Positions 10,991-15,610 of a DNA stretch of 64,000 nt are shown in pieces. The first letter of the stretch is position 1; each line of letters opens with the position of its first letter. The stretch is from contig JAHUUI010000003.1 in assembly GCA_019218315.1 (NCBI GenBank), positions 144,443 to 208,442 on the forward strand. Reading direction: 5' to 3'. The notes beneath the pieces are model-generated. The model searched no databases and was not told the origin of the DNA. It saw only the letters and a list, made by a program, of their open reading frames with translations. The DNA comes from Cardiobacteriaceae bacterium TAE3-ERU3. Lineage in GTDB: Bacteria > Pseudomonadota > Gammaproteobacteria > Cardiobacteriales > Cardiobacteriaceae. The translations under genes and the position numbers were made by a program.

Positions 10991-12063
10991 CCACCATCAG
11001 CCGCCTGCACATCAGTGGATTGCGCAATCTCGACGGCCTCGAATTGCACGCCCATCCGCACATCAACCACATTCACGGCGCCAATGGTGCGGGCAAAACC
11101 GCTCTGCTCGAAGCCCTGTATATCCTCGGGCGCGGGCGCTCGTTCCGCAGCAGCAAAACCCGCCACATCATCAGCCACGACCACGACTACTACCGTCTCA
11201 TTGCCCACCTTGAACGCAACGGCGACCAGCACCTGCTCGGCATCGAGCGCCACGCCAACGCGCATCAAATCCGTCTCGACGGCGAAGACCTCAAAAGCCT
11301 TGGCGACCTCGCCAGCCTCGTGCCGATTCAAATCATCAATTCCGATCACTTCTCGCTGATTGACCAAGGCCCCGAACACCGCCGCCGATTCATCGACTTT
11401 GGCCTGTTCTACCACGACGCCAACTTCCTGCCACAATGGCAGCGCTACCAGCACGCGCTAAAAAGCCGCAATGCCGCCTTGCGCGACGGCTGGGCAAACC
11501 AGCATATTCGTCCATGGCACGCCATGCTAGACAGCACTGCCAACCACATTGACCAGATGCGCCACGATTACCTCACACAGCTCGAAGCCGCACTCAACGG
11601 CTTCCACGCCAAGCTCGGCGGCCTGCAAACCATCACCATTCACTACCAGCGCGGCTGGCATCAGGACAAAAACCTGCGTGAACTGCTCGACGACAATCTC
11701 GACCGCGACCGCCTGCTCAAGCACACCCGCGACGGCATTCACCGCGCCGACCTGCGCTTCCATTCTGACGGCCACGACATTGCCCACCACTACTCGCGTG
11801 GTCAGCAGAAAACCCTCATCAGCGCACTGATTCTCGCCCAAGCACGCCTGATTGCCGAAGCCAGCGGTCAGCATCCGATCATGCTCGTCGACGACCTCGC
11901 CGCCGAACTCGACCCCGAAAGGCAAAACCTGCTGCTCAACTTCCTCTACGACAGCGGCGCACAGCTCTTCATCACCTCGATCACCCCTGACCTCGACCTC
12001 GGCCAGCGCGACCACCACATCCTGCACCTCGACAACGGCCGCATCATCAGCGACGCATCATGA
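10987..12063 (+). CDS. recF: DNA replication and repair protein RecF
   Basis: SMC-like ABC ATPase that loads RecA at gaps with RecO and RecR, 358 residues. It has Walker A GANGAGKTALLEALY, signature YSRGQQKTLISALILAQ and Walker B IMLVDDLAAELD. The start overlaps comM by ATGA. The stop overlaps the start of the exonuclease-like pseudogene by ATGA as well. In most gammaproteobacteria recF sits in dnaA-dnaN-recF-gyrB. Here it is coupled to comM, and gyrB lies alone about 23 kb away, so the locus has been rearranged. Confidence 0.94.
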   Translation: MTTISRLHISGLRNLDGLELHAHPHINHIHGANGAGKTALLEALYILGRGRSFRSSKTRHIISHDHDYYRLIAHLERNGDQHLLGIERHANAHQIRLDGEDLKSLGDLASLVPIQIINSDHFSLIDQGPEHRRRFIDFGLFYHDANFLPQWQRYQHALKSRNAALRDGWANQHIRPWHAMLDSTANHIDQMRHDYLTQLEAALNGFHAKLGGLQTITIHYQRGWHQDKNLRELLDDNLDRDRLLKHTRDGIHRADLRFHSDGHDIAHHYSRGQQKTLISALILAQARLIAEASGQHPIMLVDDLAAELDPERQNLLLNFLYDSGAQLFITSITPDLDLGQRDHHILHLDNGRIISDAS

Positions 12064-12659
12064 AGCACAGCAAAATCCTCTTTTTTGACCTCGAAACCCA
12101 TGACCACGACGACATCCTCAAAGTCGGCGCACTCCTTAGGCCTGACCAGCAAGAACTTGAGCGCAATACCAACAGCAAATGACACCTCGACAAACTCGCC
12201 CAGCTGGCTCAAAATGCCGATTTCATCGTCGGCCACAATATCTTCCACCATGACCGCCCCATTCTCGCTGCATACCCCACCATGCAGCACCTTTGCACCC
12301 AACCGGGCATCGACACCCAGCAACTCTCACCACCGGCGCTCCCACAAAACCCTTATCACCGCCTAATCAAAAACTACAAACTCATCAACGATAGCCTCAA
12401 TTCCCCATTGGCCAACTGCAAAGCCACTGCGACTCTGTTTGACGACCAAATAGCCGCCTTTAGCACCATGCAGCAGTGCGCCCCACAGCGCCTGCGCATC
12501 TACCACGGCCTGCTCGCCACAAACAGCGGCTACGACCAGCTGTTTCGCCACATCCGCCAAAACAACGCCCCCGCCCCTGACACCCTTGTACAAGACATCA
12601 AGCACCTACTAGAACAAAACCATATTTACAACCCAATTTCACCTCGAAAAAAGCCATAA
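12060..12659 (+). pseudogene. N-terminal DEDDh exonuclease domain of a broken exonuclease/helicase gene
   Basis: The frame opens with ATG 12060 inside the recF stop (ATGA). It reads MKHSKILFFDLETHDHDD, the DxE box of a DnaQ-fold exonuclease, but meets TGA at 12180-12182 after 40 codons. The same frame then continues to TAA 12657-12659 with HLDKLAQLAQNADFIVGHN and IFHHDRPILAAYPTMQHL (second catalytic box), and IYHGLLATNSGYDQLFRHI at the end. Composition matches recF, so this is native sequence. It resembles the N-terminus of large proteins in which a 3'-5' exonuclease is fused to a RecQ-like helicase (inference from pattern memory). The remainder is missing, and candidate C-terminal pieces lie at about 14905-15588. 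Confidence 0.7.
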
Positions 12660-13004
12660 ATCAGGACCACAGCTATTAAAAAACTTTGTTGAGTGGGATA
12701 TATAAATAGCTAGTGACGGGAGTATTTTGACTTAAGTTATATCTTTATTTTTTGTAGCCAATCCTGCTATCCGCCCATATCTGCTCAGCTAGATGTGGCA
12801 ATGGTACGGTTTGGAGCATTCCATCTAAATAAGTGACTACCCTGAGGAGGGAAATAGCAAGTATTTGGGGTACACTTGCCCCGACGCAAGAGAAAATCTG
12901 TGATTTTCTGATAACACACCTAGTCGAGCAGGATAACCGCTACTATCAGGGCTAAACCGTATTTTAAGATAACCAATAATTAACTTTACAAATTAATAAA
13001 GTAG
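12660..13004. other. Intergenic region at the left edge of the kwaAB insert
   Basis: About 345 bases without a supportable gene. Composition drops from GC-rich to AT-rich across it, so one insertion boundary probably lies here. It contains an 8-bp hairpin AGAAAATC-TGT-GATTTTCT at 12891-12909. The segment 12923-12955 resembles 1370-1402. No integrase or flanking direct repeat was found by eye. Confidence 0.45.
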
Positions 13005-13841
13005 TTAATTTAGAACTTTTACTGAATTAGCTAAACGTTTTTCTCCTCCAAAAGAAGTAGTATAAAAACGCTCTTGTATACCATATATAAGATTTTTTAA
13101 ATCAGAATCTGTATTGATTAAAAACTGCCCATTTTTTTTATCATAAGGAAGTCTATCACCACAGTAGCCATTTATATATAAACATATTTCCTGTTTCTCA
13201 TTAGAAGAGAATTTTGATAGACTATCTATTATTAAACTAATTCTCTTACGATTAGGTTTTGATACGTTCTCTGCTTCATAAGAACCGCCTAACTTAATAA
13301 AACTTTCATTTAGAAATTGTATAACTTCAGTTTCTGTAGCTTCTCTATATAAAGTATCTATACCTTCAAAGATGGTATTAATAGTAGCTAAACTTTTAAA
13401 GATTAAGGCATCTAAATCTTTAAAGTAAACGGCGTCAGGTATTTCTTTAATTAATAGGCGGTTATTATTTTCCTCTAGTTTAGTGGATTCACCAAAATAG
13501 ATAAGTGATTTTTGTCGTAAAAAAGTAGATTTGTTAACCTTTTGAAAGTAAAAATTATTATCTTGTACTGAAATAAGGTAAGAAATTTTGTTAAACTCAG
13601 ACCTTTCTATATCATCATGATCTTTAGAGTCAAAATCATTTTTTAATATATCAATACAAAAACTCTGTGATTTAAAATTATCTATTTTGAACCAAGAGTC
13701 TTCATCTAGACTATGATCAGGAGCATAATTAATACAATCTATATCAGACAAATTGAGATTATCAAAAACTATTGTCTCGGATATTAACTTTCGATAAGAG
13801 TTTACTCTAAATCTTTTTATTTTTGCAATAAGACAGTTCAA
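13005..13841 (-). CDS. kwaB: Kiwa anti-phage system protein KwaB (DUF4868-like)
   Basis: 278-residue soluble protein with no signal peptide or membrane segment, rich in Asn, Lys, Asp and Ile. The C-terminal half has the feel of DUF4868: RKRISLIIDSLSKFSSNEKQ, EICLYINGYCGDRLPYD, then FLINTDSDLKNLIYGIQERF and a terminal GGEKRLANSVKVL. In the Kiwa system KwaB is the DUF4868 partner that acts with membrane protein KwaA against phage. The start is TTG 13841, preceded by AAGGAG at ideal spacing. It lies 35 bases inside the 3' end of kwaA, so the two are translationally coupled. AT-rich codon use differs strongly from recF and trpE, indicating acquisition. The assignment rests on pattern recognition plus the partner. 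Confidence 0.68.
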   Translation of the reverse strand: MNCLIAKIKRFRVNSYRKLISETIVFDNLNLSDIDCINYAPDHSLDEDSWFKIDNFKSQSFCIDILKNDFDSKDHDDIERSEFNKISYLISVQDNNFYFQKVNKSTFLRQKSLIYFGESTKLEENNNRLLIKEIPDAVYFKDLDALIFKSLATINTIFEGIDTLYREATETEVIQFLNESFIKLGGSYEAENVSKPNRKRISLIIDSLSKFSSNEKQEICLYINGYCGDRLPYDKKNGQFLINTDSDLKNLIYGIQERFYTTSFGGEKRLANSVKVLN

Positions 13842-14397
13842 AATTTACTCCTTCAATATATGTGTAGCTATTTATTCTATTAGCTTTAAGTGCTATAGCT
13901 TTAGGTTCTCGTAAATCTTTCTTACTAATTAGAAAAAATGACATTCCCTTAACAGTAGTAACATTGTAAAATTTATATCCAAATATAAGAAACAATGGAT
14001 TAAAATATAAGGCTTGAGAAAAAAAAGTAAATACAAATAATATCATATATATAAATATCAAGGTATTAAAATCATTAATACTAAGTGCTACAAAAAAGTA
14101 CCCAAGATAACTAGGTAAAAAACTATTATTTGCATATTCTGTATTAACTATTTCACCAGCCTTAAATCTATCAGACCTTAGTTTTGAACTAAGAATGATA
14201 CTAATACCTGTAAGGCTTACTAATATAAGTATATATAAAGAATAGGATATCCAACCAGAATAATTAATAAACCATTGATACCTATTTAAGTAAGATATTT
14301 TTGTATCTAAAGTAACATCTTCTTTCACTAAGTAAATGATTATTAGTAAAAAGGTAGAATTAAAAGTAAGCAAGCCACGAAATAAAAAGTTTAGCAT
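13807..14397 (-). CDS. kwaA: Kiwa anti-phage system membrane protein KwaA
   Basis: 196-residue inner-membrane protein with four hydrophobic segments: residues about 7-25, 45-68, 94-108 and 110-130. They are followed by a conserved-looking cytoplasmic stretch FNPLFLIFGYKFYNVTT and a basic C-terminal tail. Small four-helix membrane proteins with an NP-x-L-x-x-x-GY-x-x-Y motif, immediately upstream of a DUF4868 protein, are the KwaA pattern. In described Kiwa systems KwaA senses phage attachment at the membrane and controls KwaB. It starts at ATG 14397. Codons are extremely AT-rich compared with flanking genes. An alternative is another membrane-anchored two-gene defence pair of similar layout. 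Confidence 0.68.
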   Translation of the reverse strand: MLNFLFRGLLTFNSTFLLIIIYLVKEDVTLDTKISYLNRYQWFINYSGWISYSLYILILVSLTGISIILSSKLRSDRFKAGEIVNTEYANNSFLPSYLGYFFVALSINDFNTLIFIYMILFVFTFFSQALYFNPLFLIFGYKFYNVTTVKGMSFFLISKKDLREPKAIALKANRINSYTYIEGVNFELSYCKNKKI

Positions 14398-14426: not shown

Positions 14427-14432
14427 ATTATA
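14427..14432 (-). promoter_or_regulatory. Candidate -10 element of the kwaAB promoter
   Basis: On the minus strand a perfect TATAAT lies at 14432-14427, 30 bases upstream of the kwaA start. The -35 region (about 14450-14456) is weak. It suggests that the island carries its own promoter rather than relying on readthrough. Confidence 0.5.
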
Positions 14433-14538: not shown

Positions 14539-14910
14539 TCACACCATACCCCGCACCCTCGCCATAATTCCCTTTTTAATCGCCAAGTTAACATAGCTAA
14601 CTGCTATAATCAGTAACACCGTCAGCAATGCCACACCACCCATCACGAAACTAGCCAACGGCACACTAAAGCGTAAATCAAACCACTGCGTAATCAGCAC
14701 CCAAGCGGTGATACTCACCCCGACCACGACAATCAGCCCCGCACTGACACCCAATAAACCAATCTCTAAAATATTAATCGCATACAAGTTGCGAGTCTGC
14801 ATACCGAGCAAGCGAAACGGTGCACTGTCTCGCAGGCGGTCTTGTGACGATGACAACAGCGAGGTAATCAGCACCATCATACCCGTAAGCAAAGTAAACA
14901 CCTGCACCAA
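14539..14910 (-). pseudogene. C-terminal fragment of an FtsX-type ABC permease
   Basis: About 123 codons matching the last transmembrane block of FtsX/MacB-type permeases (the YbbP-like COG3127 group). It contains TGMMVLITSLLSSSQDRLRD, the diagnostic coupling segment APFRLLGMQTRNLYAI, then three hydrophobic helices ending in KKGIMARVRGMV. A full protein of this group has about 800 residues, so over 80 percent is missing. An in-frame TGA lies directly upstream of the first TTG, and no start context exists. Downstream it stops 142 bases before kwaA. Composition is close to the chromosome average, so it was not part of the AT-rich kwaAB segment but probably arrived or was left behind in the same rearrangement. 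Confidence 0.75.
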
Positions 14911-15588
14911 TCAGCTCATCTAAACCACAACGCTTTAGATTTGTTTGGCAATCGCCCCACCATCAATACTCGTAATTACAGGGAACTGGCACACGCAAGC
15001 TCCACCATCAGCAAAAACAAACGATAATGACTCTGTTTAATTGCCCCAATGGACTCACTCAACGCCGACGAATCGCAGTCGCCCGTTGCCCTAAATCCAC
15101 AAATGCCTTCACCGACTTAGCAAAGCCATCGCAGACAAAAATAGCACCGTAATCACCAACAACTTCAAAAACCGTAACACATTATCCGATCCTCCCAGCA
15201 CCGACGTATCTGCACTATCAGCATCACTCATCGTCACATCAGGCTGACTCACCAACATCTCAGCCAACCGAGTCTGCTCAACTCAACGAAGTCTTCATCG
15301 ACTAAAGCAGCCGGCAAGAGATCAATGCAGCCACCCACCAGTACATCAACCAACTTGCCATCGGTGATCCGCTAACCCTGCGCAGTAGCAACTACGGCTG
15401 CAACATCCTCGACAAACATGGCAATACTGTCCTCAAAACCAGCAGAAAATACTATCCCGCCCCCCCGAAAAATCCTCATATCTGCCCACATCGCAGATAT
15501 TTACATCCGCAAGCAAAGCGGTAATTAGGATGAACGCTACCATGAAAAGCTGTACTGCGAGCAATTCGCCGTAGTCATCCCGAACTGA
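14905..15588 (+). pseudogene. Degenerate C-terminal remains of the exonuclease/helicase gene
   Basis: No long open frame exists, but three plus-strand stretches read as protein once stops and shifts are allowed. These are SAHLNHNALDLFGNRPTIN onward from about 14911 to 15025, then ADKNSTVITNNFKNRNTLSD at about 15130-15195, then NEVFID-stop-SSRQEINAATHQYINQ and IGDPLTLRSSNYGCNILDKH from 15285. A shift in a run of C follows, then SAHIADIYIRKQSGN-stop-DERYHEKLYCEQFAVVIPN to about 15588. They share strand and composition with the exonuclease fragment at 12060. The simplest reading is that they are the 3' end of the same gene. The helicase family call is inference. Confidence 0.5.
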
Positions 15589-15610
15589 CCCTAAAACGCT
15601 AGACATAAAA

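What the first reader, a model, noticed from the sequence alone, without database searches (positions are those of the whole stretch)
13005..14397. Kiwa-type two-gene anti-phage system in an AT-rich island
The two minus-strand genes form a coupled pair: a four-helix membrane protein with the FNPLFLIFGYKFYNV segment, and a soluble DUF4868-like protein starting from TTG inside the first gene behind AAGGAG. This is the KwaA-KwaB pattern. Base composition drops sharply against recF on one side and trpE on the other, the pair has its own TATAAT, and it interrupts a degraded gene. All this fits a recently acquired defence island. KwaB is 278 residues, which I recall as shorter than typical members, so a divergent subtype is possible.
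Basis: partly seen in the sequence, partly recalled or inferred. Interest (0 to 1): 0.75.

Follow-up and report, generated by a model that had tools for sequence, protein, structure and literature searches.

The report
Divergent Kiwa anti-phage gene pair
Two foreign-looking, AT-rich genes between recF and trpE in this bacterium encode a divergent but recognisable Kiwa defence system, a membrane sensor plus a partner protein thought to block phage DNA as it enters the cell; this is a new member of a known system, not a new kind.

Summary
Two intact, overlapping minus-strand ORFs (kwaA 13807-14397, 196 aa; kwaB 13005-13841, 278 aa, TTG start) sit in the most AT-rich stretch of the window (25-27% GC against a mean of 48%). 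KwaA matches PADLOC KwaA models (2.7e-18) and KwaB matches PADLOC KwaB/DUF4868 models (8e-10). Pfam and NCBIfam give nothing. The predicted KwaA fold has the solved KwaA structures as its top PDB matches (VIA-align 2 Z 10-12.5, next row 3.9). The KwaB model is poor, but the solved KwaB structures are still its top matches. Thirteen homologous loci from three phyla, plasmids and viral contigs carry the same A-then-B pair. Several lie beside restriction genes, and A and B diverge together. No other of 32 genomes of the order has KwaA. It belongs to a divergent clade: classical members found here score 114-397 bits for KwaB, ours 37. 278 residues is normal for this clade. Corrections: the pair lies between two different degraded genes rather than inside one, and the promoter claim is no better than chance. 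Anti-phage activity was not tested. New member of a known kind.

The parts
13807..14397 (-). kwaA: 196-aa membrane protein, 4 hydrophobic segments, then a cytosolic beta-rich C-terminal part; the last 14 aa extend into kwaB and are absent from homologues
   Evidence: PADLOC KwaA PDLC00216 E 2.7e-18; top PDB matches are solved KwaA, Z 12.5/10.7/10.1; hydropathy; alignment
13005..13841 (-). kwaB: 278-aa soluble DUF4868-type protein, TTG start
   Evidence: PADLOC KwaB PDLC00229 E 8e-10 over profile 72-279/282; top Foldseek matches are solved KwaB 9mtn/9mrx_D/9nyu; no hydrophobic segment
13848..13853 (-). AAGGAG ribosome-binding site of kwaB, inside kwaA, 6 nt before the TTG
   Evidence: read; most homologues have a similar purine-rich site at the same junction
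14427..14432 (-). TATAAT, possible -10 element of the pair (weak: no good -35, not above chance)
   Evidence: sequence; promoter scan
12060..12656 (+). flank: degraded exonuclease-like ORF starting at the recF stop, one in-frame TGA
   Evidence: no Pfam hit, so the identity rests on motif reading only
14539..14910 (-). flank: 3' remnant of an FtsX-type permease gene; decayed sequence continues to about 15600
   Evidence: PF02687 FtsX 6.8e-08; an intact 880-aa paralogue elsewhere in the genome, 53% identical

Best explanation
The pair is a horizontally acquired Kiwa system of a divergent clade. By analogy with E. coli Kiwa, KwaA forms an inner-membrane tetramer that holds KwaB dimers and responds to phage attachment or injection at the envelope. 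KwaB then binds the incoming phage DNA and blocks its replication and late transcription, with RecBCD as a partner. Shown here: both genes are intact, homologous to KwaA and KwaB, arranged as the two-gene unit, foreign to the host lineage, and the host has RecB and RecC. Inferred from published Kiwa work: complex formation, sensing, DNA binding and protection.
For: PADLOC KwaA 2.7e-18 and KwaB 8e-10. Fold matches to solved Kiwa subunits: KwaA Foldseek E 7.5e-4 with probability 1.00 and Z 12.5 against 3.9 for the best unrelated row; KwaB is first in Foldseek at E 1.5e-3 with a poor model and at Z 7.5. A KwaA family profile finds E. coli KwaA 9mrg at 3.1e-5 by sequence. The A-then-B pair is conserved in 13 other loci, with gaps of -4 to +10 nt where counted. 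KwaA and KwaB identity matrices correlate: Mantel r 0.92, none of 5000 permutations reached it. Homologous pairs lie between hsdR and a McrB-like ATPase gene, between hsdS and hsdM, near a DNA methyltransferase and a Vsr-like gene, and in viral contigs. 25-27% GC in a 48% GC window. No KwaB in 11 other genomes of the family, no KwaA in 31 others of the order. RecB and RecC open frames present. Mechanism of Kiwa as reviewed in PMC12904381, PMC12593503 and PMC13190303.
Against: No activity data. The KwaB model is low confidence (pLDDT 59), so its fold match is suggestive only. Pfam KwaB (PF16162) does not reach this protein. A KwaB profile does not find solved KwaB by sequence. Sequence identity to solved KwaA is about 15%.
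Confidence: 0.93

Rival explanations
1. A true Kiwa locus by descent that is no longer protective in this host: weakly expressed, or altered by the 14-residue C-terminal tail of KwaA that homologues lack.
For: KwaA runs 14 residues past the family's usual end; overlap with kwaB is 35 nt, where homologues have gaps of -4 to +10 nt; both flanking genes are decayed; no promoter above chance.
Against: No stop or frame break in either conserved part; conserved positions are kept in both proteins; the ribosome-binding site of kwaB is good.
Confidence: 0.12
2. The pair serves mainly a mobile element, as a prophage or plasmid superinfection-exclusion module that was left behind, rather than being maintained as host immunity.
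For: Close homologues lie in viral contigs and on plasmids.
Against: No match in the deposited phage collection; no integrase, phage gene, attachment-site repeat or tRNA adjoins the pair in this window. The mechanism would be the same either way.
Confidence: 0.1
3. A two-gene unit only distantly related to Kiwa, with a function other than phage defence.
For: KwaB score is low (36.7 bits) compared with 114-397 bits for classical members on the same models; no Pfam or NCBIfam hit.
Against: Both partners independently hit Kiwa models, both top the structural search against Kiwa, in the Kiwa gene order, and relatives sit beside restriction genes.
Confidence: 0.05

Closest known systems
Kiwa (KwaA-KwaB), E. 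coli type, solved structures 9mrx, 9mrg, 9mrr, 9mtn, 9nyu; Zhang et al. Cell 2025 (cited in PMC12904381; paper itself not held)
   Same: Two genes in the order kwaA-kwaB; four hydrophobic helices plus beta-rich cytosolic part in KwaA; DUF4868-type KwaB; top structural match for both proteins.
   Different: About 15% identity; KwaB 278 aa against 315 aa; not reached by Pfam or NCBIfam models; KwaA has a 14-aa C-terminal tail overlapping kwaB.
[quoted passage not shown]
   Same: Two-gene Kiwa in a genome outside E. coli; KwaB described there as alpha/beta N-terminal part with all-helical C-terminal part, like the secondary structure predicted here.
   Different: Sequence not compared here (not retrieved).
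Unnamed kwaAB pairs found here: viral contigs L012/L013 (52-55% identical), Ottowia L001, Roseivivax plasmid L004, Persicobacter L005, Lachnospiraceae L002, N. gonorrhoeae L006, lactobacilli L007/L010
   Same: Same clade, same gene order, similar lengths (KwaB about 267-281 aa).
   Different: Short or no overlap of the two genes; some lie next to restriction-modification genes.

Membership tests
Kiwa | kwaA homologue (membrane protein with about four transmembrane helices) | tested here: met
   PADLOC 2.7e-18; hydropathy; fold Z 12.5 to 9mrx_A, rmsd 5.2 over 173 residues
Kiwa | kwaB homologue (DUF4868 / PF16162-like) | tested here: met
   PADLOC KwaB (DUF4868) 8e-10 and 1.3e-07; Foldseek top matches solved KwaB. 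Pfam PF16162 itself gave no hit for this protein and only weak hits for two relatives, best E 0.0033
Kiwa | KwaB fold shown with a confident model | tested here: inconclusive
   model pLDDT 58.8, pTM 0.40; VIA-align 2 Z 7.5 with rmsd 13.5 over 174 residues, and Z 6.5 with rmsd 3.5 over 99 C-terminal residues
Kiwa | adjacent co-directional genes, kwaA then kwaB | tested here: met
   same in 13 other loci
Kiwa | KwaA tetramer binding KwaB dimers | not testable with these tools
   single-chain prediction only
Kiwa | protection against phage, DNA binding by KwaB, cooperation with RecBCD | not testable with these tools
   host has RecB and RecC open frames; no assay possible

The most novel reading that the evidence does not exclude
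The pair and its relatives form a separate Kiwa lineage spread over at least three phyla by plasmids and phages, which common family models miss and which may sense a different phage signal or use KwaB differently from E. coli Kiwa.
Probability: 0.12. Interest if true: 0.45.

Novelty: new member of a known kind. Interest (0 to 1): 0.22.

Why it matters
It is a clean Kiwa locus in a lineage where no other sampled genome has it. It points to a divergent Kiwa clade that Pfam and NCBIfam do not label, so such pairs would pass as hypothetical proteins. The clade would widen the alignment of KwaA and KwaB and help find residues needed for sensing and DNA binding. It does not change what is known about how Kiwa works.

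Tried and rejected
Pfam and NCBIfam scans of both proteins gave nothing. Sequence searches of the PDB with either protein alone gave nothing; the 10-sequence KwaB profile gave only chance hits and the 15-sequence one none. The first KwaA profile's best hits were ghrelin receptors at E 0.06 or weaker, rejected as chance for a helical membrane protein. No match to KwaB in the deposited phage collection. No Rfam family in 11.9-16.1 kb. No attachment-site repeats, terminal inverted repeats above chance AT-rich matches, or adjoining tRNA that would mark an island boundary. The neighbouring intergenic sequences are not repeated elsewhere in the genome, apart from the FtsX remnant and one 31-base match. 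An exact empty site could not be shown: comM-recF is conserved in four relatives, but the sequence after recF differs from this genome and trpE is not there. The order of branches inside the clade is not resolved in the KwaB tree.

Full report
What is there. Two minus-strand ORFs overlap by 35 nt: 13807-14397 (196 aa, ATG) and 13005-13841 (278 aa, TTG, with AAGGAG at 13848-13853). They lie in the lowest-GC part of the window: 25% and 27% GC, 17% at third codon positions, against a window mean of 48% with sd 5%. Open frames of 278 and 196 codons have probabilities of about 1e-11 and 1e-8 at this composition.

What the proteins are. The 196-aa protein matches PADLOC KwaA models, best 2.7e-18 over almost its whole length. 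The 278-aa protein matches PADLOC KwaB (DUF4868) models at 8e-10 and 1.3e-07. Pfam and NCBIfam give nothing. Homologues were found in genomes of Ottowia and Lachnospiraceae, on plasmid-collection records of Roseivivax, Persicobacter, Neisseria, Sphingobium, Apilactobacillus, Latilactobacillus and E. coli, and in viral contigs. Two more distant, classical pairs came from a search of the phylum. In every locus with both genes the KwaA-type gene comes directly before the KwaB-type gene, with a gap between -4 and +10 nt in the loci measured. KwaA motifs such as LPSYLGYFF and YFNPLFLIFGYKFYNV are conserved. Pairwise identities of KwaA and KwaB across 14 loci correlate at r 0.92, and none of 5000 permutations reached that, as expected for partners that travel together.

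Structure. A KwaA model (pLDDT 70) has solved KwaA as its first four PDB matches, Foldseek E 7.5e-4 to 4.1e-3. VIA-align 2 gives Z 12.5 (rmsd 5.2, 173 residues), 10.7 and 10.1 for the three KwaA entries and 3.9 for the next row. A profile of the widened family also finds E. coli KwaA by sequence at 3.1e-5. The KwaB model is poor (pLDDT 59), probably because few sequences could be used. Even so its first six Foldseek matches are all solved KwaB, the best at E 1.5e-3. VIA-align 2 puts KwaB first at Z 7.5, though the global rmsd is 13.5; the C-terminal helical part superposes at rmsd 3.5 over 99 residues, Z 6.5. Taken alone the KwaB fold is only suggestive; with the profile hit and the genetic linkage it is convincing.

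Divergence. Two classical KwaB proteins found here score 114-397 bits on the four KwaB models that match this clade, and the window's protein scores 37 on its best. In a tree of 14 KwaB sequences those two stand apart from the window's group with full support, while the order inside the group is unresolved. The clade spans Pseudomonadota, Bacillota and Bacteroidota. KwaB length in it is about 267-281 aa, so 278 is not a truncation.

Context. Nearby the pair stands alone: recF and comM on one side, trpE and trpG on the other. Between recF and kwaB is an exonuclease-like fragment with one in-frame TGA. Upstream of kwaA is the decayed end of an FtsX-type permease gene, of which an intact 880-aa relative exists elsewhere in the genome. 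So the pair lies between remnants of two different genes. comM-recF is conserved in four relatives, but what follows differs. KwaB is found in 1 of 12 genomes of the family and KwaA in 1 of 32 of the order, this one each time, and KwaB in 4 of 398 of the phylum. In homologous loci the pair lies between hsdR and a McrB-like ATPase gene (L012/L016), between hsdS and hsdM (L006), near a DNA methyltransferase and a Vsr-like gene (L002), and in viral contigs; these gene names are my reading of the translated neighbours, not profile hits. This supports defence and mobility.

Mechanism. [quoted passage not shown] The original paper is not held, so this rests on reviews. The host here has RecB (1250-aa open frame) and RecC (1119-aa open frame) side by side. 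I infer that the window's pair works the same way. Homology and gene order are shown; complex formation, sensing, DNA binding and protection are inferred.

Oddities. KwaA here ends 14 residues later than its homologues because its frame runs on into kwaB. This could be harmless.

Verdict. It is a new member of a known kind and of modest interest.

Noticed in passing
window 13807-13841: KwaA reads 14 residues past the usual family end into kwaB, giving a 35-nt overlap where homologues have gaps of -4 to +10 nt.
   Followed up: partly
window 12060-12656 (+): Exonuclease-like ORF beginning at the recF stop, with one in-frame TGA; no Pfam hit and no second copy in the genome; not found downstream of recF in four relatives.
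   Followed up: partly
window 14539-15600 (-): Decayed FtsX-type permease gene; only the 3' 123 codons are open. Intact relative (880 aa) at G000:C1:319340.
   Followed up: partly
window 12780-13010 (-): Intergenic stretch downstream of kwaB folds more stably than shuffles (z -2.8) with long imperfect hairpins; no Rfam family and no second copy in the genome.
   Followed up: partly
L012 1-6828 and L016: A contig classed as viral carries kwaAB between hsdR and a McrB-like ATPase gene, so it may be a defence island misclassified as virus, or a satellite element.
   Followed up: no
L009 1383-2876: E. coli plasmid p101EVA-3 carries a Kiwa-like pair in which the kwaA-like gene looks split (homology falls in two frames), and only kwaB is annotated.
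   Followed up: no
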